Source: Candidatus Kapaibacterium sp.
Lineage (GTDB): Bacteria > Bacteroidota > Ignavibacteria > Kapaibacteriales > UBA4661
NCBI GenBank assembly: GCA_004292595.1
Contig: RDXM01000090.1
Span: forward strand, 1-57,859
Length of the DNA stretch: 57,859 nt
Reading direction: 5' to 3'
The position numbers and the translations under genes were made by a program. Below the pieces are notes generated by a model that saw only the letters and a list, made by a program, of their open reading frames with translations, did not search any database and was not told the origin of the DNA. The stretch's first letter is position 1. Every line of letters begins with the position of its first letter. Shown here piece by piece: positions 3,049 to 57,859 of this stretch.

Positions 3049-3115
3049 GATTGAAGAAGTAGAATTGTGAACAGAATAACTTTAGAGAAGGTAAAAATAA
3101 GTGGTCAAAGCCAAT

Positions 3116-3193
3116 AGTGGCACAGACATTCTTGTCTGTGTTTGTTGTCTGAAACCCGCACCAATACTCACAGACAAGAAGTCTCAAGCCACT
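3116..3193. repeat. CACAGACA-class palindromic repeat, copy 1
   Basis: The left arm (3116-3140, AGTGGCACAGACATTCTTG then TCTGTG) pairs with the right arm (3169-3193) as an imperfect hairpin of about 25 bp, with a roughly 28-nt loop. The left arm is nearly identical to that of the copy at 38011-38099. It lies between the methyltransferase stop and the pheT start. Confidence 0.8.
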
Positions 3194-5512: not shown

Positions 5513-5596
5513 AAAAAGTGTACATAAAAGGAGTGTGGCTGTTCATGCCTACCGCGCAGCGAGAGCCTCGTACGCGTGGCTTACCTAACTGTTATT

Positions 5597-5789
5597 GTAA
5601 CTGGTCAGGTCTCAACAATGAAAAGGGGACGCAGATGAAGATGATTGGATTGATGAAGATGATGTTGATAAAAATTAAGAAGAGTGAATGCAGACTTCGT
5701 CTGTTATTGATGTTTTCATCATTTTCATCATTTTCATCCATTTAATCATCTTCATCTGCGTCCAAAAAAATCATGACCTGACCAGTTAC
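5597..5789. repeat. Nested inverted-repeat element, GTCAGGTC class, copy 1
   Basis: The outer arms are a perfect 15-bp inverted repeat (GTAACTGGTCAGGTC at 5597-5611 and its complement at 5775-5789). Inside them a perfect 20-bp inverted pair begins GGACGCAGATGAAGATG (5627-5646 and 5744-5763), flanked by degenerate GATGAAGATGATG runs. No open frame of interest lies inside. The same outer and inner words recur at 57504-57764. The element fills most of the gap between the porZ-like gene and fni. Confidence 0.85.
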
Positions 5790-5792
5790 CTG

Positions 5793-8171
5793 TTATTTTT
5801 GAATGACCATTGCTTTGACCACAGCGTTTGTGCCGTTTGCCTCAGAATACGCCGAGATAACAAACACGCCACTTTGCACGGCACGACCAAAATTATCGAA
5901 GCCGTCCCAAACAACCGTGCGCGAATTTGATTTCGCAAACGAGCGAACAAGGATGCCGTCAATCGTCGAAATTTTTACTTCCGAATTTTCTGCCAAGCCG
6001 TCAATCACGAGTTCGTTGTCTTGCTGCGGTACGAAGGGTTGCGGGAAGCAACGGAGCGCGGAAAAATCAGCATTCGGCTTGACCGACAGTGTTTGTGCGA
6101 CCGACAAGCCATTGTCTGTGCCGAAATAGACCTTGCCAGAGTTGTCGTCAATCGCAATGGCAAAGACGGAATTGCTGGTAAGCGGGGAGTTTTGCGTGGT
6201 AAATTGCGCCAGCACCTTGCCGCCGACTTCATCCAGCACCCACACGCCGTTGTTTGTGCCAATCCACTTGTAATTGAGTGCGTCCACCGCAATCGCATTG
6301 ATGCTTTGGTCGGCGAGTGCGCGGTTGGTTTCGAGTGAAATGCGCACGGGCGATGTTGTGTTCAACACTACGCCTGGATTGATAATTGCATACAAATTTT
6401 TCGGTGTGCCAATCCAGACAAAATCTTGCTTGTCCGCCACAATGCAGCTTTGTCCTTCCTCAATCAGTCCGCTTGGCAGATAATACCAAATGTCGTCGTT
6501 GGGATTACTCAGCGTGTTGTTGTCGTTGTAGGCGAGAATTTGCGTACCGCGCCAGGTTGCGAACCAGCGAGTATTTGCGCGGTCAATGGCTTGGAAAATG
6601 TATTGCTTCTCGCGGAGAATCGGGCTGGAGCGTTTGTAGAATCTGCCTTGCGCGTCGCGCTGGATAACGAGACTATCCGCCAAAAAATTCGGCATCGAAA
6701 GAACGCCGCGCTCATCGGTGCGGACTTGTCCCGTAACGATAAATTCTCCCGACGAAAAACTGAGCGTAGAATTAGTTGTGGTGAAACTTGTCAAGCGGAA
6801 GCCAGTATTTGCGCTCGTTCCCGTACCGCTTCCCGTCCGTTCAATTTGCAACACGCCCGCGCGTCCGAAATTTGCTGCCCAGACCGAACCGTCTGGCTGC
6901 GCGTCAATTTGGTAGTACGTGTTTGCTCGCATTTGCGGATAATTTGCCACATTAAAGACCGACCATTTCTCATTTTCAAAAAGCGAAATGCCCGTCGCGC
7001 CGCCGTCGTTGGGGATTTGCGCTGGAAAGCCCGCGCCAGAAACACACCACAAACCGCCTTGTTTATCCACCGTGAGAGAGCGGAAGCGGTTTGCAAGCGG
7101 GGAATTGAGTGAAATAAAGTTCACGGGCGTGGCGGGCGGCATTGTCATTCCGCCGACGCTTGGCGTGAGGAAGCCGAAACTTTGCGTGGTATTTACTGAA
7201 AGCCGCTCCATTCCTTGCACCTGAACAACATTCAAACCATTGATAAAACGCGGGTCGGCGACCATGAGCTGCTCTTCTTGACGCAATCGCCAAACGCGGC
7301 TCTGCGAGGCGTAGTAAAGCTGGTTTTGGAAGGCTTGCATGGAAACAATCGGCTCAAAAGCGGTTACGAGCGTCGTATCGAAGCGGTTTTGGCGCATTTG
7401 CCAAAGGCTTTTGTCCTGCACCGCATAAACGCTCGTTCCCAGCACGGCAATCTGCGAGACCGCTTGCTGCGTGAGCGGCGTGTTGTTTGCTACGAGCGGG
7501 TGAATTGTCCAGAGCGCAGGACTGACGTAGCTCCGCGAACCAAGCTGCGCGGAAACCACGCCGCCGTCGGTGGCAGCCCAGATGCGGTTTTGCGCAAGCA
7601 AAAGTTGCTTTACGGGTAAATTCGGCTGCAAAGCACCAAAACGCTGGACGGTCTCGGTAATCACATTTCGTGCGGGGTCGAAGACAATCAGCCCAAATTC
7701 ACCACCGATAAACACGAGATTGTCAATAAACAAAAAGCTGTTAATCTGCTTGCGCGGCGTGTTTGCGCTGAGAACATCGGTGATATTGCGCCAATTTTTG
7801 CCGTCGAAAATATTAATCACACCATTGAAGCCGCCAGCGTAGATGTCGCCCGTTGTTGGGTGAATGGCGAGCGCGGTAATATCCAAGCCCAAAAGCGCGT
7901 TCACATTGCGATACTCCTGCACCGCATTGGTACTGGGGTTGTAGGAAAATACGCCGCCCGACGTGCCTGCCCAGACCGTACCATTCCTATCGGAGGCGGT
8001 TGCGCGAATGTTCAGCATGGAAGAATATGTCTGCCATGCGCTGACGCGCACCTGCGCTACAAGGCGCGTGGGAGCTTGCATTGCAGCAAAAGATATCGAA
8101 ATCATTGCAACAAAAAACAACACTGCACCAGCGCGAAACGAGCGTTGGGAGCGATATTGGGAGAAATTCAT
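5793..8171 (-). CDS. porZ: PorZ-like two-propeller protein with T9SS-type C-terminal domain
   Basis: Predicted exported protein of 792 residues. A signal peptide (residues 1 to about 40, ending near TRLVAQ) is followed by repeated propeller blades of the type NGTVWAGTSGGVFSYNP, GDIYAGGFNGVINIFDGKNW, NRIWAATDGGV, NYKWIGTNNGVW and GKVYFGTDNGLSV, then a FlgD-like sorting domain (VVWDGFDNFGRAVQSGVFV) at the end. The blade text INSFLFIDNLVFIGGEFGL resembles PorZ, the surface T9SS component that presents anionic lipopolysaccharide to the sortase in Porphyromonas. Length and architecture also fit PorZ. I chose the ATG at 8171 because it begins a normal signal peptide; an in-frame ATG at 8216 adds 15 residues. 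It could instead be a generic propeller cargo protein. Confidence 0.8.
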   Translation of the reverse strand: MNFSQYRSQRSFRAGAVLFFVAMISISFAAMQAPTRLVAQVRVSAWQTYSSMLNIRATASDRNGTVWAGTSGGVFSYNPSTNAVQEYRNVNALLGLDITALAIHPTTGDIYAGGFNGVINIFDGKNWRNITDVLSANTPRKQINSFLFIDNLVFIGGEFGLIVFDPARNVITETVQRFGALQPNLPVKQLLLAQNRIWAATDGGVVSAQLGSRSYVSPALWTIHPLVANNTPLTQQAVSQIAVLGTSVYAVQDKSLWQMRQNRFDTTLVTAFEPIVSMQAFQNQLYYASQSRVWRLRQEEQLMVADPRFINGLNVVQVQGMERLSVNTTQSFGFLTPSVGGMTMPPATPVNFISLNSPLANRFRSLTVDKQGGLWCVSGAGFPAQIPNDGGATGISLFENEKWSVFNVANYPQMRANTYYQIDAQPDGSVWAANFGRAGVLQIERTGSGTGTSANTGFRLTSFTTTNSTLSFSSGEFIVTGQVRTDERGVLSMPNFLADSLVIQRDAQGRFYKRSSPILREKQYIFQAIDRANTRWFATWRGTQILAYNDNNTLSNPNDDIWYYLPSGLIEEGQSCIVADKQDFVWIGTPKNLYAIINPGVVLNTTSPVRISLETNRALADQSINAIAVDALNYKWIGTNNGVWVLDEVGGKVLAQFTTQNSPLTSNSVFAIAIDDNSGKVYFGTDNGLSVAQTLSVKPNADFSALRCFPQPFVPQQDNELVIDGLAENSEVKISTIDGILVRSFAKSNSRTVVWDGFDNFGRAVQSGVFVISAYSEANGTNAVVKAMVIQK

Positions 8172-8336
8172 AACATCCAACAAAGAAGTGAAACAACAGG
8201 GGATACGGCGGGTCAATGCGTCATGCGTCGTGAAATGTGGGAGAAGTGGGAATCGTCAAGCGAAACGATGACGAGAAGGCAAAAATACGAGTTTTTTTGA
8301 AACAATGTGCGGGAATAATTCCTCAACGATGATTCT

Positions 8337-31900: not shown

Positions 31901-32096
31901 GCATTTCGCTCTTCAAAGCAGAAAGATTATTTTCAAAACCGCCCTGCACAAACGATTGTTCCATTGTCTGTTTTCATTTCGTTTTGTAATTTGTTTTCTG
32001 CTCGCTGGAAACGAGCAAATACCCGAAAAATGCTCCCGCCACTACCGCATAAACACTCTTCTCTTTCAATTTTACCGCATTCTTCCTCTCTTTCAT

Positions 32097-34505
32097 ATGA
32101 AACACTCTTTTCCTTTGTTTCGCAAAGCGATACAAGCCGCATCAACGCTTGCGTTGAGCGTTCTTTGCCTCAGCAGCGCACCGCTCCTTGCGCAGTACAC
32201 CGTCGATGGCAATCCAAACCGTAAATTTGAGCCGATTGATATGCTTCTTCCTTCGCCAAACAGCTACCGCACCGCCTCTGGTGCGCCTGGCAAGGATTAC
32301 TGGCAACAAAAAGCAGATTATGTTATTTCGGTGGAATTAAACGAGCAAACCCGCTCCATTACTGGCTCAGAGACCATCACCTACACCAATAATTCCCCCG
32401 ACGCGCTCGAGTATTTGTGGTTGCAACTCGACCAAAATGCCTTTGAAAAAAACTCCGAAAAATACATGACGCAAACAAGTACGCCGTTTGCGAACCAAGT
32501 GTCGCTCAACACCGTCAAACGCTCACTTGATAAAATAACGTTTGATGGCGGCTACAAAATTAAAACTGTGAAAGATGCATCGGGAAAGCCGCTTAAATAC
32601 GCGGTTGTTGGAACAATGATGCGCGTGGATTTGCCAACAGCTTTACGTACAGGACAAAAGTTTAGCTTTGGCGTAGAATGGTCGTTCAACATCGTTCCGA
32701 AGGACTTCGGCGAGCGTTCCAACTACGAATTTTTCCCCGCCGACAGCAATGACATTTTCGGTGTGGCGCAGTTTTTCCCGCGTATGGCAGTGTATATCGA
32801 CCACAAAGGCTGGCAGCACAAGTCATTCCTTGGAACAGGCGAATTTACCTTGCCTTTCGGCGATTACAAAGTGAGCATCACCGTTCCTGCCGACCACGTT
32901 GTGGGCGCGACAGGAGCATTGCAAAATGCGGATAAAGTTCTGAGTCCCGACCAGCGTAGCCGCTTGAAGCAAGCCGAAACCGCAACTGCGCCTGTACTCA
33001 TTGTTACGAGCGACGAAGCGAAGAAAAACGAGGCTTCGCGCACCACTGCTGCTGCGAAGCAGAAAAAAACATGGGTTTACACCGCAGAGCGTGTACGCGA
33101 TTTTGCATTCTGTTCTTCGCGCAAATTTATTTGGGATGCACTTGGCGTAAACGTAGAAGGCAAGCGGGTTCTGGCGATGTCGTTTTTCCCAAAAGAAGGC
33201 GACCCGCTTTGGGGACAATACTCCACCCGCGCCATTGCTCACACTTTGAAAACGTATTCAAAATACACCTTCCCGTATCCATATCCTGTCGCAATCTCCG
33301 CAAACGTGGACATTGGCGGCGGTATGGAATACCCGATGATTGCTTTCAATGCGCCGCGTCCTGATGCGGACGGCACGTATCATCCGCGCGTGAAGGACTT
33401 TTTGCTTTTGGTTATTTTCCACGAAGTTGGACACAACTATTTCCCAATGATTGTGAATTCCGACGAGCGTCAGTGGGCGTGGATGGATGAGGGTTTGAAT
33501 ACGTTTATGCAATTTTTAGCAGAACAAGAATGGGATAGAAATTTTAACTCGTCGGCAGGTTTTCCGCGCACGATTACCGATTACATGAAAGCGGAAAAGA
33601 ACGTGCTTACGCCGATTATGACCACTTCGGACAACATTCCAGGACGCGAATACGGCGACAATTCATACGACAAACCCGCAACTGCTCTTAATATCTTGCG
33701 CGAAACCGTTTTGGGGCGCGAACTCTTTGATTATGCGTTCAAAAAATATGCACAACGGTGGATGTTCAAGCATCCAGAACCAGCAGACTTTTTCCGCACA
33801 ATGGAAGATGCTTCGGGCGTAGATTTGGACTGGTTCTGGCGCGGTTGGTTCTACACCACCGACCATTGCGATATTGCGCTGAACAAAGTACAACGCTACG
33901 TGATTGACACGCGCAATCCCGACGTGGAACTTGTTGCCAAAAAGCAAGATAAAACCTTGCTTCCACCAGATTTGACCACCATGCGCAATCAAACCGACAT
34001 TGCCCAAACCGTCACCGAACTTGATTCCAACGCCCGCGATTACTACGACAAAAACGACCCATTTGCGCCGCGTTCATGGCAGAAGAAAGATTTTGAGAGG
34101 TTTGTGAACGGTTTGAACGACAAAGAACGTGCGATTGTGAACGGTGGTATGAATTTCTACGAATTGGAATTGGAGAACATTGGCGGCTTGGTTATGCCCG
34201 TCATTGTGGAACTCACCTACGCCGACAGCACGAAGGAAATACGCCGCATTCCAGCGGAAATTTGGCGATACAACAACCAAAAAGTGACCAAGCAACTCAC
34301 TACCACCAAGCCCGTCATTTCTATCACGATTGACCCGTACTTGGAAACCGCCGATACCGACCTTGCAAACAACAGTTTCCCGCGTCGTCAGGTAGAATCT
34401 CGCTTCCAGCTTTTCAAAGGTCGTCAGTCGAGTACGCCGAATCCGATGCAGCTTGAACGCCAAGAAAAAGCGGTGAAAGAAGGCAAGGACAAAGGAACGA
34501 ATTAG
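32097..34505 (+). CDS. Secreted M1-family metallopeptidase, copy 1
   Basis: Gluzincin aminopeptidase-like enzyme of 802 residues with a signal peptide (hydrophobic core about 12-30, ending APLLAQ). The beta-rich N-terminal domain has SITGSETITYTNNSPDALEY and LWLQLDQN. The exopeptidase-type motif GGGMEYPMIAF replaces GAMEN. The zinc site is HEVGHNYFPM with Glu 18 residues after the second His (WAWMDEGLNTF), giving HExxH-x18-E. A C-terminal part of about 200 residues follows the LDWFWRGWFYTTDHCDIAL segment. It is likely exported to digest peptides. A close paralogue follows 400 bases downstream. The ATG at 32097 is chosen for the leader; the frame is open upstream to 31956. Confidence 0.95.
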   Translation: MKHSFPLFRKAIQAASTLALSVLCLSSAPLLAQYTVDGNPNRKFEPIDMLLPSPNSYRTASGAPGKDYWQQKADYVISVELNEQTRSITGSETITYTNNSPDALEYLWLQLDQNAFEKNSEKYMTQTSTPFANQVSLNTVKRSLDKITFDGGYKIKTVKDASGKPLKYAVVGTMMRVDLPTALRTGQKFSFGVEWSFNIVPKDFGERSNYEFFPADSNDIFGVAQFFPRMAVYIDHKGWQHKSFLGTGEFTLPFGDYKVSITVPADHVVGATGALQNADKVLSPDQRSRLKQAETATAPVLIVTSDEAKKNEASRTTAAAKQKKTWVYTAERVRDFAFCSSRKFIWDALGVNVEGKRVLAMSFFPKEGDPLWGQYSTRAIAHTLKTYSKYTFPYPYPVAISANVDIGGGMEYPMIAFNAPRPDADGTYHPRVKDFLLLVIFHEVGHNYFPMIVNSDERQWAWMDEGLNTFMQFLAEQEWDRNFNSSAGFPRTITDYMKAEKNVLTPIMTTSDNIPGREYGDNSYDKPATALNILRETVLGRELFDYAFKKYAQRWMFKHPEPADFFRTMEDASGVDLDWFWRGWFYTTDHCDIALNKVQRYVIDTRNPDVELVAKKQDKTLLPPDLTTMRNQTDIAQTVTELDSNARDYYDKNDPFAPRSWQKKDFERFVNGLNDKERAIVNGGMNFYELELENIGGLVMPVIVELTYADSTKEIRRIPAEIWRYNNQKVTKQLTTTKPVISITIDPYLETADTDLANNSFPRRQVESRFQLFKGRQSSTPNPMQLERQEKAVKEGKDKGTN

Positions 34506-34509
34506 AAGA

Positions 34510-34630
34510 AAGTATGAGGGCTGAAGTATGAGGGATGAAGGTTTGATGCCAGACGGAGGAGATAGCCCCCACATTTTAGTTCTCATCCTTGTACAACTTC
34601 AGCCCTCAAACTTCATATTTCATCCTTTCT
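34510..34630. repeat. Imperfect palindrome between the M1 paralogues
   Basis: GAGGGCTGAAGT (34516-34527) and its complement (34596-34607) form a 12-bp inverted pair, with further GGATGAAGG/CATCCTT-type matches outside and inside. Similar GGATGAAG/GAGGG words follow the gene ending at 31024. Confidence 0.6.
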
Positions 34631-34641
34631 TGAGAAATATC

Positions 34642-34857
34642 ATGGACAAAACAGAACACATCATCAGCCTCTTGCATGAAATTCTCGCCAATCAACGCGA
34701 ACTCCATGCCGACGTAAAAGCCATGCACCGCCGCATCGACGATATGCACTGGAAAATAGACGATATGTACGAAGAACTTCGCGCCTTTCACAACACATTG
34801 CGCATGGTCGAAAAGCGTCTGGAAGAGCCGCCGCGCCTGAATATTTTTCCGAATTGA
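34642..34857 (+). CDS. Small coiled-coil protein
   Basis: A 71-residue protein that is almost entirely one amphipathic helix: IISLLHEILANQRELHADVK, then MHRRIDDMHWKIDDMYEELR, with heptad-spaced hydrophobics and a short tail ending PRLNIFPN. A family name cannot be given. The repeated M..(R/K)IDDM units at seven-residue spacing suggest a dimeric or trimeric coiled coil. It lies between two M1 peptidase genes in the same direction, 46 bases upstream of the second. The frame extends upstream into a palindromic repeat, but the ATG at 34642 is the sensible start. Confidence 0.7.
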   Translation: MDKTEHIISLLHEILANQRELHADVKAMHRRIDDMHWKIDDMYEELRAFHNTLRMVEKRLEEPPRLNIFPN

Positions 34858-34902
34858 TACAATACGAACAATACATTTTACTCACACATTTTCACTCCCC
34901 CA

Positions 34903-37284
34903 ATGAAACGCTTTGCTTCGCTTCTTTGCGGCATTGCCATCTCAGGCGCATCACACCTCGCTGCGCAAGGCATTAGCAATACCGCCGACAACCTCACGGG
35001 AAAGTTTGAGCAGCTTGGGCAGCTCCTTCCCACGCCGAACACCTACCGCACAGCCTCTGGTGCGCCTGGACACCAGTATTGGCAACAAAAAGCGGATTAC
35101 GTCATCAATGCTGAATTGAACGACGACAACCAGTCTATAAGCGGCTCGGAGACGATTACCTACACGAATAACTCCCCCGACGCGCTTACTTACTTGTGGT
35201 TGCAGCTTGACCAAAATCATTTTGCAAAAACCTCCGAAACCTATTTGACGCAAACAGGCAAGCTGCAAGGCGGCACAGGTCGCGCAAATCCCCAAGGTTC
35301 GACGATGGATGCAGCAAAAAACTATGTGTTCCAAGAAACCTTTGATGGCGGCTTCAAAATCAAAAGCATCAAAGACGCAGCGACGGGAAACCCGCTTAAA
35401 TTCACGGTTGTCAAGACGATGATGCGCATTGACCTGCCCGCAACCTTGCGGAACGGACAAAAATTCGCGTTTTCTATTGAGTGGAATTTTAACATCGTTC
35501 CCTCTGAAACCCGCGCCCGTTCTTGCTACGAGTATTTTCCAAAAGATAAAAACTACTTGTACGAAGTCGCGCAATGGTTCCCACGCATGGCGGTGTATGG
35601 CGACAACTGTGGTTGGAATCACAAGCAATTCCTTGGCGGCGGCGAATTTACCTTGCCTTTTGGCGACTACAAAGTGAGCATTACTGCGCCTTCCGATATG
35701 GTTGTTGGTGCGACGGGCGAATTGCAAAATGCTTCGAGTGTGCTGAGTGCCGAGCAGCAAGCGCGGTTTGCGCAAGCGAAAAGTGCGGATGTTCCCGTGA
35801 AAATTATCACCAACGACGAAGCATTGAAAAATGAATCTTCTCGCGCTACAAGCAAGAAAACATGGGTCTTTCAAGCCGACAACGTGCGTGATTTCGCCTT
35901 TGCTGCATCGCGCAAGTTTATTTGGGATGCAATGGGCGTGAACGTCGAAGGCAAGCGGGTTTTGGCAATGTCGTACTATCCGAAAGAGGGAAATCCGCTC
36001 TGGGAGCAGTATTCGACGCGCTCAGTGGCTCACACGCTGCGCACCTACTCGAAGTTCACGGTAGCGTATCCGTACCCAGTCGCAATTTCCGTGCATGGTC
36101 CCGTCTTTGGCATGGAATACCCGATGATTTGCTTTAATGGCGGTCGCCCGCTTCCCGACGGCACGTATCCTGAAGCCACGAAATTCGCGCTTATTTCGGT
36201 GATTATTCACGAAGTCGGACACAATTATTTCCCCATGATTATCAACTCCGACGAGCGTCAGTGGGCGTGGATGGATGAGGGGTTAAACTCATTTGTGCAA
36301 TTTCTTTCCGAGCAGGAATGGGACAGAAACTACCCGTCGCGTCGCGGTCCAGCGCGGAATATGGTGGATTACATGAAAGCCGACAAGCAGCGCACTCAGC
36401 CAATTATGACAAATCCTGAACAGGTTACGGAGCTTGGGAATAATTCCTACGGAAAGCCCGCAACTGCCCTGAATATCTTGCGCGAGACCATTTTGGGACG
36501 CGAATTATTTGACTATGCGTTCAAAGAATACTCCCGCCGTTGGGCATTCAAACACCCGACTCCAGCAGACTTTTTCCGCACGATGGAAGATGCTTCGGGA
36601 ACAGATTTGGACTGGTTCTGGCGTGGTTGGTTCTACACGACGGATTATTGCGATATTGCGCTTGAGGGCGTTCGCCGCTATTCAATTGACACGCAAAATC
36701 CCGACGTAGAAAAGCCGAAAGAACAAGCATTGGCGGGCAAAGAGCCGCAAAATATCACGGTGGAGCGCAATCGCAAAGATGTTGCGAAAACCTACATTGA
36801 GCAGGACACCGCCGCGCTTGATTACTACAACAAAACAAGCCAATTTGCCGTAAAACCTTGGGAAAAAGAGGACTACGAGCAATACGTGGCAAGCCTGAAC
36901 GAAGAAGAGCGTAAAATCGTGAACTCTGGCAAAATCTTCTACGAATTGGATTTGGCGAACAAAGGCGGACTCATGATGCCCGTCATCATCCAATTCAGCT
37001 ATGAGGACGGAACAAAGGAAGTACGCCGCATTCCAGCGGAAATCTGGCGACAAAACACGCAAAAAGTGACGAAAGTATTCATGGTCAGCAAGCCCGTACA
37101 GTCGTTCCTCATTGACCCGTACCAAGAAACAACGGACATTGACCCAGCAAACAACGCATTGCCGCTTCAGGTGCCGCCGACGCGCTTCCAAGTTTTCAAG
37201 CAGCAACAACAGCCCTTCCCGAATGAAATGCGCGATGCTCGTGAGTTCGAGTCACGCCAGAAAGAAACCAAAGGAAGCAAGTAA
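34903..37284 (+). CDS. Secreted M1-family metallopeptidase, copy 2
   Basis: A 793-residue paralogue of the gene at 32097, with the same order: signal peptide (about 1-22, ending HLAAQG), beta domain with SISGSETITYTNNSPDALTY, catalytic domain with FGMEYPMICF and HEVGHNYFPM plus WAWMDEGLNSF (HExxH-x18-E), LDWFWRGWFYTTDYCDIAL, and a C-terminal region ending in a Lys/Gln-rich tail. All zinc and exopeptidase motif residues are kept, so both copies should be active. Differences concentrate in the linker after the beta domain (residues about 105-135) and near the tail. A hairpin terminator follows the stop. Tandem duplication is clear; divergence in substrate choice is inferred. Confidence 0.95.
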   Translation: MKRFASLLCGIAISGASHLAAQGISNTADNLTGKFEQLGQLLPTPNTYRTASGAPGHQYWQQKADYVINAELNDDNQSISGSETITYTNNSPDALTYLWLQLDQNHFAKTSETYLTQTGKLQGGTGRANPQGSTMDAAKNYVFQETFDGGFKIKSIKDAATGNPLKFTVVKTMMRIDLPATLRNGQKFAFSIEWNFNIVPSETRARSCYEYFPKDKNYLYEVAQWFPRMAVYGDNCGWNHKQFLGGGEFTLPFGDYKVSITAPSDMVVGATGELQNASSVLSAEQQARFAQAKSADVPVKIITNDEALKNESSRATSKKTWVFQADNVRDFAFAASRKFIWDAMGVNVEGKRVLAMSYYPKEGNPLWEQYSTRSVAHTLRTYSKFTVAYPYPVAISVHGPVFGMEYPMICFNGGRPLPDGTYPEATKFALISVIIHEVGHNYFPMIINSDERQWAWMDEGLNSFVQFLSEQEWDRNYPSRRGPARNMVDYMKADKQRTQPIMTNPEQVTELGNNSYGKPATALNILRETILGRELFDYAFKEYSRRWAFKHPTPADFFRTMEDASGTDLDWFWRGWFYTTDYCDIALEGVRRYSIDTQNPDVEKPKEQALAGKEPQNITVERNRKDVAKTYIEQDTAALDYYNKTSQFAVKPWEKEDYEQYVASLNEEERKIVNSGKIFYELDLANKGGLMMPVIIQFSYEDGTKEVRRIPAEIWRQNTQKVTKVFMVSKPVQSFLIDPYQETTDIDPANNALPLQVPPTRFQVFKQQQQPFPNEMRDAREFESRQKETKGSK

Positions 37285-38010: not shown

Positions 38011-38099
38011 CTTCAGTGGCACAGACATTCTTGTCTGTGTTCTCCGCTTGAATCTTGCGCTAACAATCACAGACAGGAATGTCTGTGCCACTATCGAAG
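38011..38099. repeat. CACAGACA-class palindromic repeat, copy 2
   Basis: Arms 38011-38039 and 38068-38099 are inverted copies over about 28 bases (CACAGACA, AGGAATGTCTGTGCCACT and a terminal CGAAG). Loop of about 28 bases. It lies between the Rrf2 gene and sufA and could form a long hairpin in the mRNA. Confidence 0.85.
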
Positions 38100-38883: not shown

Positions 38884-39384
38884 ATGACAGGGCAGCATAA
38901 CTGGCAAGAACTCGCCGCCACGTCGCATTATCAAACCGCAGTAGAAGTGCGGCAGGAGCTGTACGCAGGCAATATGCCGGAAGCAATCATGGGCGTTACC
39001 GAGCTTATTGACGCGCTCTATCGCAGCGATAAGCGGACATTGCGCGGGCAGCTTATTCGCGCCATGAAGCATATTTTAAAATGGCATCTTGGGCGTGAGT
39101 ACCGCACCACTGCTTGTGTTGTGAGCATTGCTTCGGCACGTGATGAAATCGAATTTTTGTTGGAAGATGAGCCACGTTTGGCAGCAGAATATCGCACGTA
39201 TTTGGAATCACTCTTGCAGCGTGCTTTCCAGTTTGCCTACAATGAGGTTATTATCGAAACAGGCAACAAACCAGCAATCACGCAGCTTTCATGGCATGAG
39301 GTGTTTGAGCAAGACTATCCGCAAGATGTAGAATTTGCCGAAGCACCAATATTTCGTACAGCGCAAAACGGCACAAATACTTGA
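38884..39384 (+). CDS. DUF29-like protein, array member 1
   Basis: A 166-residue helical protein of the DUF29 type. Typical features are NWQELAATSHYQTAVEVRQE near the start, RSDKRTLRGQLIRAMKHILK and WHLG in the middle (about 47-70), a helical RTYLESLLQRAFQFAYNEVI, and the closing motif LSWHEVFEQDYP. Compared with its neighbours it has about 20 extra C-terminal residues (QDVEFAEAPIFRTAQ). DUF29 has no established function. It begins two bases after the DUF4177 stop. The three copies run in tandem inside the SUF gene group. Confidence 0.82.
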   Translation: MTGQHNWQELAATSHYQTAVEVRQELYAGNMPEAIMGVTELIDALYRSDKRTLRGQLIRAMKHILKWHLGREYRTTACVVSIASARDEIEFLLEDEPRLAAEYRTYLESLLQRAFQFAYNEVIIETGNKPAITQLSWHEVFEQDYPQDVEFAEAPIFRTAQNGTNT

Positions 39385-39396
39385 TGCGACGGCAGC

Positions 39397-39699
39397 ATGA
39401 GTCGCCGCGACCACCGCTCAGTGCAGAGCTATTTAGTGATTGCAATGCTGCACATCATCAAATGGAAAACGCAGCCGAATAAACGTTCTCATAGCTGGAT
39501 GTTTTCTATTGCCAACAGCCGTCAAGCGATTGCGGACATTTGTGCCGCCGAACCAAGCATCAATCAAGCCGTTCTCGTTTCGTATTGGGAACAATCATTT
39601 CGCAAAGCACGAAAAAAGGCGATAGATGAAATGCGGCAAAGCACTGATATTACCTCGCTTTCATGGCAGGAAGTGTTTGAAGAAAAATACACCCTATAA
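39397..39699 (+). CDS. DUF29-like protein, array member 2, N-terminally truncated
   Basis: A 100-residue DUF29-like frame that begins in the middle of the domain: SRRDHRSVQSYLVIAMLHII aligns with IDRRAVKSHLIILMMHIIKW of member 3. The N-terminal W.EL... region present in members 1 and 3 is absent, and there are only 12 bases between the previous stop and this ATG. The C-terminal motif LSWQEVFEEKYTL is intact. This looks like a deletion between tandem copies. It may be a non-functional remnant or a short expressed form. Confidence 0.65.
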   Translation: MSRRDHRSVQSYLVIAMLHIIKWKTQPNKRSHSWMFSIANSRQAIADICAAEPSINQAVLVSYWEQSFRKARKKAIDEMRQSTDITSLSWQEVFEEKYTL

Positions 39700-39707
39700 A
39701 GCGTACT

Positions 39708-40160
39708 ATGGAAACAGCAACCAAAAATCAACAGCATTGGCAAGAGCTTATTTTTTCGTCGCATTACCTCACCACCGCAGCTATTCACCGAGAGTTGCAG
39801 GACGGCAATGTGGAAGCGGCTCTGCTAGGAACAACTGAACTTATGAATGCTATGGCAAGTATTGACCGCCGTGCCGTCAAGAGCCATTTGATAATTTTGA
39901 TGATGCACATTATCAAATGGAAAACGCAAGAAAACGCTCGCTCTCGCTCATGGACACGCACCATACGCAACGCACGGCATGAGATTTCTGAAATTCGAGA
40001 GGCAACGCCAAGTATTACCGATTCTACCATCCTTGCCTTCTGGGACAAAGCCTTTTCCGTCGCACTGGTAGATGCCGAAGACGAAATGAATTGTCGTACA
40101 ACAATTACCTCACTTTCATGGCACGAAGTCTTTGAAGAAGAATACTCGTTGCCCTTCTAA
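39708..40160 (+). CDS. DUF29-like protein, array member 3
   Basis: Full-length DUF29-type protein of 150 residues: QHWQELIFSSHYLTTAAIHR at the start, VEAALLGTTELMNAMASIDR, the core helix HLIILMMHIIKWKTQENARS, RSWTRTIRNARHEISEI, and the final LSWHEVFEEEYSLPF. It starts eight bases after member 2 and is followed by 54 bases before sufB. It is closest in text to member 2 (HIIKWKTQ...RS.SW). Function is unknown; the location suggests co-expression with the SUF genes but not a proven role in them. Confidence 0.82.
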   Translation: METATKNQQHWQELIFSSHYLTTAAIHRELQDGNVEAALLGTTELMNAMASIDRRAVKSHLIILMMHIIKWKTQENARSRSWTRTIRNARHEISEIREATPSITDSTILAFWDKAFSVALVDAEDEMNCRTTITSLSWHEVFEEEYSLPF

Positions 40161-46550: not shown

Positions 46551-46572
46551 TATACCGAGGTTTTTAATTGAA

Positions 46573-46636
46573 CAGGCATTCTTTCCCGCTTTGGTGGCTG
46601 AAACAGCGCATCAATACTTGCGAGAAAGAATGCCTG
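46573..46636. repeat. Palindromic hairpin between convergent sufD and OmpA genes
   Basis: CAGGCATTCTTTCCCGC (46573-46589) pairs with GCGAGAAAGAATGCCTG (46620-46636) with one mismatch; the loop is about 30 bases. The core CATTCTT resembles the CACAGACA-class arms. It may serve as a two-way transcription end, although no T-run is adjacent. Confidence 0.75.
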
Positions 46637-46674
46637 TCCTGTTTGATACCACATTGACGATGACTGGGTGCTTC

Positions 46675-57476: not shown

Positions 57477-57503
57477 GATGAGAAGAAAATAAAGAAGCAA
57501 TGA

Positions 57504-57764
57504 AACTGGTCAGGTCTCGGTAATAAGGAGGGACGCAGATGAAGATGATTGAATGGATGAAGATGATGAAAGAGCAGAAAAATATCAAAGATGTCTGCAT
57601 ATTCATTTCATCATCGTAGCTGTTCAGGTCTAGGGGAATGCGGATTTAGAGGACTCAAGAGGACGTTGAGGATTTCAGAATATTTGGTACGAATGTGCCA
57701 GAGTCCTTATCCGTCCTCAAAAGTCCTCTAAATCCGTGTTCCTTGACGAATGACCTGACTAGTT
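57504..57764. repeat. Nested inverted-repeat element, GTCAGGTC class, copy 2
   Basis: The outer ends AACTGGTCAGGTC (57504-57516) and GACCTGACTAGTT (57752-57764) are inverted with one mismatch. Just inside the left end is the GGACGCAGATGAAGATG word shared with the copy at 5597. A third GTTCAGGTCT lies at 57621-57630. The right half holds a separate palindrome (57635-57742). Confidence 0.82.
57635..57742. repeat. Inner palindrome GGATTTAGAGGACT class
   Basis: Arms 57635-57665 and 57712-57742 are inverted copies of about 31 bases with a few mismatches (core GGATTTAGAGGACT), separated by a 46-base loop. It is nested in the larger element 57504-57764. Confidence 0.8.
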
Positions 57765-57807
57765 ATACCGTTTCGATTGTAAAATGAATAGTTTCAATTC
57801 TCCGAAA

Positions 57808-57827
57808 CAAGGCAGCATGCTGCCTTG
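57808..57827. repeat. Perfect 20-bp palindrome
   Basis: CAAGGCAGCATGCTGCCTTG is its own reverse complement. It lies near the window edge, beyond the last gene. No gene is visible between 57765 and 57859. Confidence 0.7.
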
Positions 57828-57859
57828 CTCAAATCAAAGTATTCAAAATACAGTCAAAA

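What the first reader, a model, noticed from the sequence alone, without database searches (positions are those of the whole stretch)
5597..5789. Two copies of a nested inverted-repeat element with GTCAGGTC ends
The copy at 5597-5789 has perfect 15-bp ends and an inner perfect 20-bp inverted repeat starting GGACGCAGATGAAGATG. The copy at 57504-57764 shares the end sequence and the inner word but has a different second half containing another palindrome. The modular exchange of interior parts between common ends is unusual for a simple repeat.
Basis: seen in the sequence. Interest (0 to 1): 0.6.

Follow-up and report, generated by a model that had tools for sequence, protein, structure and literature searches.

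The report
IS66-type MITEs with swapped hairpin cores
The two repeats are tiny transposons without genes that share the ends of an IS66-family jumping gene but carry interchangeable hairpin interiors, one of which is identical to the hairpin arms around a small nuclease-like gene elsewhere in the same bacterium.

Summary
The repeat at 5597-5789 is a complete miniature transposon (MITE): perfect 15-bp terminal repeats GTAACTGGTCAGGTC, a perfect 8-bp target duplication (CTGTTATT) and an inner palindrome. It belongs to a large dispersed family, not a single duplication: 22 of 31 paired copies examined in this genome have target duplications of at least 7/8 (swapped flanks 17/930). The copy at 57502-57766 is a chimera of half an element and a complete element with a different core, without a target duplication. 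In sibling species the same end abuts IS66-type transposase ends, and three IS copies pair by 8-bp duplications, so these are IS66-type MITEs; this genome shows no IS66 transposase. Across six genomes the same ends enclose 10 multi-member core families, and 99 of 106 cores are strongly self-complementary. So 'fixed ends, variable interiors' is right. Beyond that, the focal core is identical (38/38 nt) to the inverted arm beside a GxxExxY gene in the same genome, and 11 of 11 GxxExxY genes found in nine genomes have inverted arms (controls 2/185, 2/200). In sibling G007 a related core sits between unrelated ends. Capture and exchange of cores is inferred, not shown.

The parts
5589..5596 (.). 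target site duplication, left copy (CTGTTATT)
   Evidence: 8 of 8 identical to 5790-5797
5597..5611 (+). terminal inverted repeat GTAACTGGTCAGGTC
   Evidence: same end abuts IS66-type transposase in siblings
5627..5664 (+). left arm of inner palindrome (core family A), identical over 38 nt to the arm beside the GxxExxY gene in contig C112
5726..5763 (-). right arm of inner palindrome
   Evidence: 89% complementary to the left arm; outer 20 nt perfect
5775..5789 (-). terminal inverted repeat, right end
5790..5797 (.). target site duplication, right copy; holds the stop codon of the porZ-like ORF (ends at 5793)
57502..57615 (+). left part of a family-A element (end plus left arm plus part of the centre); its right end is missing
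57616..57766 (+). complete family-B element: ends GTAGCTGTTCAGGTC / GACCTGACTAGTTAT around the core GGAATGCGGATTTAGAGGACT; no target duplication in its present flanks
57635..57665 (+). left arm of family-B core
57712..57742 (-). right arm of family-B core

Best explanation
The elements are non-autonomous IS66-type transposons (MITEs). An IS66-family transposase, encoded by full insertion sequences in sibling species and not detected in this assembly, recognises the 15-bp ends GTAACTGGTCAGGTC and inserts whatever lies between them into mostly intergenic sites, duplicating 8 bp. Between those ends lie interchangeable hairpin cores. Three core families (A, F, E) match the inverted arms of a second kind of unit, a GxxExxY gene lying between arms built of short repeats; those MITE cores would be gene-less forms of such hairpins taken up between IS66 ends and then amplified. 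Shown: ends, target duplications, link of the ends to IS66-type transposase, variety and self-complementarity of cores, identity of core A with the GxxExxY arm. Inferred: mobilisation in trans, direction of capture (hairpin into MITE rather than the reverse), and that copies recombine to exchange arms.
For: TSD of 8 bp: 18/31 perfect and 22/31 >=7/8 in this genome, swapped flanks 17/930; 58/75 >=7/8 in five other genomes, swapped 51/5550. IS66 link: in G001 the end GTAACTAGTCAGGTC overlaps the stop of an ORF matching PF03050 at 5.6e-11; in G004 GTAACTGGTCAGGTC lies 2 nt past the stop of a piece 76% identical to it; in G002 nine 5' ends and nine 3' ends of one IS carry this end, and three pair by 8-bp flanks GATTTGCT, ATTTCAAC, CCTAAATC (paired by eye). 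Independent IS66 copies in a Caldilineaceae genome have GTAACTACTAAGCC ends with 8-bp duplications, 5 of 6 perfect and 1 at 7/8 (read by eye). Cores: 19 clusters, 10 with two or more members; 99/106 fold with z below -3. Core A arm equals the GxxExxY arm 38/38; core F matches over 31 nt at 96.8%, core E over 23 nt at 95.7%. 11/11 GxxExxY genes have arms at E<=1e-4, against 2/185 and 2/200 control placements. Empty sites: 17/20 not inside an ORF, random positions in the same flanks 119/400.
Against: No IS66 transposase (PF03050) in this genome, so the source of transposase is not shown here; G002, which has the IS66-type ends, also scored 0, so absence may be an assembly effect. The short G002/G004 transposase pieces gave no Pfam match on their own. 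4 of 11 GxxExxY arms match no MITE core and 4 more only over 13-17 nt. Cores C and D have no link to GxxExxY genes. One core family (4 members, median z -1.3) is not palindromic. 9 of 31 own-genome pairs lack a 7/8 duplication. No experiment shows movement.
Confidence: 0.88

Rival explanations
1. The hairpins are primarily functional RNA elements (processing sites or terminators), and the repeated ends are merely the base of a long stem.
For: The focal element folds at -82.3 kcal/mol, z -12.2, and lies between a porZ-like and an idi-like ORF on the same strand.
Against: Precise 8-bp target duplications at 22/31 copies, the same ends on IS66-type IS copies, no Rfam match in the window. Long inverted repeats fold well by construction.
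Confidence: 0.07
2. A single MITE family decayed and diversified by point mutation; the different cores are only distant relatives of one ancestor.
For: Cores A and E share the outer stem and spacer (ATGATTTTTTTTGGACGCAGAT, by eye).
Against: Cores such as D, F and the 202-bp non-palindromic family do not cluster with A while the ends are nearly identical; an A-type core in G007 has different ends altogether.
Confidence: 0.08
3. Direction reversed: GxxExxY genes were inserted into pre-existing MITE hairpins, so the gene-bearing form is derived from the MITE.
For: In this genome A-type palindromes are far more numerous than the single gene-bearing copy.
Against: The gene-bearing copy has no IS66 ends outside its arms; genes between arms of many unrelated sequences occur in genomes with few such ends (G001, G007, G009) and on three plasmids of other bacteria.
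Confidence: 0.2

Closest known systems
IS66 family insertion sequences
   Same: Ends starting GTAAC, 8-bp target duplications, transposase matching PF03050 next to this very kind of end in a sibling
   Different: The window's elements have no transposase gene, only about 15 bp of each IS end, and a hairpin core
Bacterial MITEs (Correia/NEMIS, RUP, Chunjie, MITECca01)
   Same: Short, non-coding, terminal inverted repeats, target duplications, many copies, hairpin-forming (passages of PMC10969869, PMC9769881, PMC2229807)
   Different: The passages read describe size variants or one core per family; here one set of ends encloses many unrelated hairpin cores
23S rRNA intervening sequences with S23/four-helix-bundle genes
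   Same: A small gene between inverted arms; 6 of 8 TIGR02436 genes in these genomes have arms of short repeats (the Coxiella IVS is known to me here from the abstract start of PMC4990558)
   Different: The units here were not seen in rRNA; the GxxExxY gene is a PDDEXK_3 protein
REP elements / REPINs
   Same: Paired hairpins in intergenic DNA; cores C and D look REP-like (by eye; recalled family)
   Different: Here flanked by IS66-type ends with 8-bp duplications; no RAYT transposase was searched for

Membership tests
MITE | Terminal inverted repeats | tested here: met
   perfect 15/15 at 5597-5611/5775-5789
MITE | Target site duplication of constant length | tested here: met
   8 bp; 22/31 >=7/8 against 17/930 swapped; other lengths near control
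MITE | Short, without a transposase gene, many copies | tested here: met
   core family A median 193 bp; 31 paired copies examined
MITE | Ends shared with an autonomous element | tested here: met
MITE | Mobilised in trans by that transposase | not testable with these tools
   needs a transposition assay
IS66-type ends | GTAA start and 8-bp duplication (recalled for the family, then checked on named copies) | tested here: met
   Caldilineaceae IS66 copies GTAACTACTAAGCC, 5/6 perfect 8-bp duplications, 1 at 7/8
GxxExxY hairpin unit (as seen here) | Inverted arms equal to the MITE core | tested here: met
   core A 38/38 nt
GxxExxY hairpin unit (as seen here) | Carries the gene | tested here: not met
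   matches of MITE interiors to the gene-bearing copy fall in its arms and the MITE nested in it, not in the gene

The most novel reading that the evidence does not exclude
GxxExxY (and four-helix-bundle) genes in these bacteria are the cargo of an undescribed class of mobile units defined not by a conserved end sequence but by arm-to-arm complementarity of short tandem repeats; their gene-less hairpins behave as exchangeable cores that different transposon ends (IS66-type here, TAGGACTTTCGCAAA-type in a sibling) pick up and spread.
Probability: 0.4. Interest if true: 0.75.

Novelty: new variant of a known kind. Interest (0 to 1): 0.58.

Why it matters
It shows a bacterial MITE system in which ends and interiors evolve as separate modules, and it gives the functionally blank GxxExxY family a concrete genomic setting (a gene between inverted, repeat-built arms) that can be tested as a mobile or RNA-processed unit.

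Tried and rejected
Rejected: integron attC-like sites (considered only by reading; 8-bp duplications explain the ends better); an autonomous element at the lone ends in contigs C76 and C11 (no transposase seen among the ORFs there). The pattern scan of genome contigs with both ends gave 0 hits, the own genome being possibly left out. GxxExxY relatives in viral contigs: none confirmed. Compensatory change in core A was not counted formally; by eye the arms of recent copies vary independently, so no claim of selection on pairing is made. Core B versus the G005 GxxExxY arm (L324): resemblance by eye only, no BLAST hit at 0.01.

Dropped rows: of 80 pairs found in sibling loci, 5 were dropped before as overlapping or chance pairings (L113 at 14, L157 at 1411, L163 at 2540, L216 at 48, L225 at 144); 26 loci without a pair were not counted. 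Listings were cut at about 100 places per genome, so counts of pairs cover part of the copies. My note says 6/6 perfect for the Caldilineaceae duplications; re-reading one search gives 5/6 perfect and one 7/8.

Full report
Observation. The element at 5597-5789 has perfect 15-nt terminal inverted repeats and an inner palindrome with 38-nt arms, outer 20 nt perfect. It is flanked by a perfect 8-bp duplication, CTGTTATT, the right copy of which contains the stop codon of a porZ-like ORF (5793-8216, minus strand). The copy at 57502-57766 starts as the same kind of element and, at 57616, continues as a complete element with its own, slightly decayed ends and another palindromic core; there is no duplication at its borders.

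A family, not a duplication. In the own genome (4.6 Mb, 199 contigs, window = contig C194) the 15-nt end with at most one mismatch occurs 74 times, the reversed-pattern control once; the inner word occurs 143 times, control 0. In 71 stretches held (187,609 bases; the listings that guided them were cut at 100 places) I found 31 paired copies. The 8 bp outside the ends agree perfectly in 18 and in at least 7 of 8 positions in 22; in swapped flanks 17 of 930 do; no other length from 4 to 12 stands out comparably. With flanks joined, 17 of 20 sites have no ORF of 100 codons across them, against 119 of 400 random positions in the same flanks. These are MITEs with an intergenic bias.

Which transposase. 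The own genome has no match to the IS66 transposase family PF03050; three of nine related genomes do. In G001 the end GTAACTAGTCAGGTC overlaps the stop codon of a broken PF03050 ORF (5.6e-11). In G004 the exact end sits beside a C-terminal piece 76% identical to it, and other contigs begin inside the opposite end of the same IS. In G002 nine 5' ends and nine 3' ends of one IS, all broken at contig edges, carry the exact end; three of them pair through 8-bp flanks (my pairing by eye). The pieces in G002 and G004 are too short for a Pfam match of their own. As an outside check, six IS66 copies in a Caldilineaceae genome start GTAACTACTAAGCC and have 8-bp duplications, five perfect and one 7/8. 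Contig lengths tie G001 and G004 to records titled Candidatus Kapaibacterium sp. and Ignavibacteria bacterium; the own organism is in the same genus by the tool's label.

Same ends, many cores. Among 61 genomes (own included), 10 have the end with at most one mismatch, three of the genus in dozens (G000 74, G002 73, G005 147). From G001, G002, G005, G007 and G009, 75 pairs were kept (5 of 80 dropped), 58 with duplications of at least 7/8, swapped 51 of 5550. Interiors of all 106 fall into 19 clusters at 70% mutual coverage, 10 with more than one member: among them GTCGGGCGGCTG (33 members, G005; called D here), GGACGCAGATGAAGATG (29, G000 and G005; A), GAACGCAGATTGCCATGATT (7; E), CCGTCCTACCG (6; C), CACGAATCGCACGAATCC (4, G002 and G005; F), GGAACGCGGATTTAGAGGAC (3; B) and a 202-bp non-palindromic one (4). 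99 of 106 interiors fold with z below -3 (40 shuffles each). In the 33-member family the two arms carry three alternative small hairpins in several combinations (h1/h2 11, h3/h1 6, h1/h3 5, h2/h1 5, unclear 6). Some MITEs carry a further hairpin element in their loop (C73:15553, C84:32180, L127, L166, L221).

Cores with other ends. In G007 the A-type palindrome matches at six places (eight matches); none has the IS66-type end within four mismatches; three have TAGGACTTTCGCAAA-type ends (<=2 mismatches) on both sides, two on one side, one on neither. The same TAGGACTTTCGCAAA ends occur in this genome around a different hairpin, once inside an A element (C84) and once at C113.

Cores and GxxExxY genes. 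A recalled lead was that hairpins of short repeats flank GxxExxY genes. Eleven such genes were found in six of nine genomes. All eleven lie between inverted arms (E<=1e-4, 33-49 nt, 77-97.5% identical); the same test on 330-bp placements gave 2 of 185 in the window and 2 of 200 in sibling loci. The own-genome gene (C112:25013-25339, PDDEXK_3, 1e-40) has arms identical over 38 nt to those of the focal MITE; the G002 gene's arm matches core F over 31 nt; a G007 gene's arm matches core E over 23 nt; four arms match no core and four only over 13-17 nt. The own gene-bearing copy has no IS66-type ends outside its arms, and a decayed MITE lies inside it. Of 114 inner-word ends with enough flank, 96 have an end-like 15-mer with at most 5 mismatches (2.5% in shuffled flanks) and 13 have none. 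Six of eight four-helix-bundle genes (TIGR02436) are also armed, with other repeats; the own-genome one is not. On plasmids of other bacteria 3 of 8 GxxExxY genes are armed.

Literature. Searches for IS66 with MITE, for bacterial MITEs with unrelated or palindromic interiors, and for nested MITEs (open-licence PMC texts only) listed no paper that, by title, abstract start or the passages read (PMC10969869, PMC9769881, PMC2229807), describes IS66 MITEs with exchangeable cores; IS66 appears in PMC9769881 only as one IS in a table. 'GxxExxY' occurs in two papers, whose passages do not mention flanking arms. Most subscription journals and ISfinder were not searchable, so this is weak evidence of novelty.

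Reading. The MITE identity and the IS66 link are secure. That hairpin cores occur with more than one end type is well supported by the G007 and GxxExxY comparisons, but the order of events is inferred. Most likely a gene-less GxxExxY-type hairpin came to lie between IS66-type ends and was amplified by IS66 transposase; other hairpins did the same independently, and recombination between copies shuffled arms and produced chimeras such as the one at 57.5 kb.

Noticed in passing
window 3114-3180, 38015-38094, 46559-46650: Another dispersed hairpin, AGTGGCACAGACATTCTTGTCTGTG; it also lies inside IS66-type MITEs of this and a sibling genome (C73:15553, C84:32180, L127, L166).
   Followed up: partly
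window 57767-57859: A palindromic repeat (ACCGTTTCGATTGT...GGCAGCATGCTGCC...) directly beside the MITE end and cut by the contig end; the same repeat abuts MITE ends at C102:22051 and C11:8546.
   Followed up: no
L328, L329, L330, L331, L333, L334: Six of eight four-helix-bundle (TIGR02436) genes in related genomes lie between inverted arms of short tandem repeats (e.g. TTGGTTACTTGGTTC).
   Followed up: partly
L340, L341, L342: GxxExxY genes on Bernardetia, Bacteroides finegoldii and Sphingomonas plasmids also have inverted arms of short repeats.
   Followed up: partly
L288/L289 (G004:C85): Two IS66-type ends in tandem 14 nt apart: one IS copy appears inserted just inside the 5' end of another.
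   Followed up: no
window 31956-37284: Two adjacent long ORFs are 72-83% similar over several stretches (2.8-kb tandem paralogues).
   Followed up: no
window 39285-40144: Short coding segments repeated two or three times (33-65 nt, spaced 372-455 nt).
   Followed up: no
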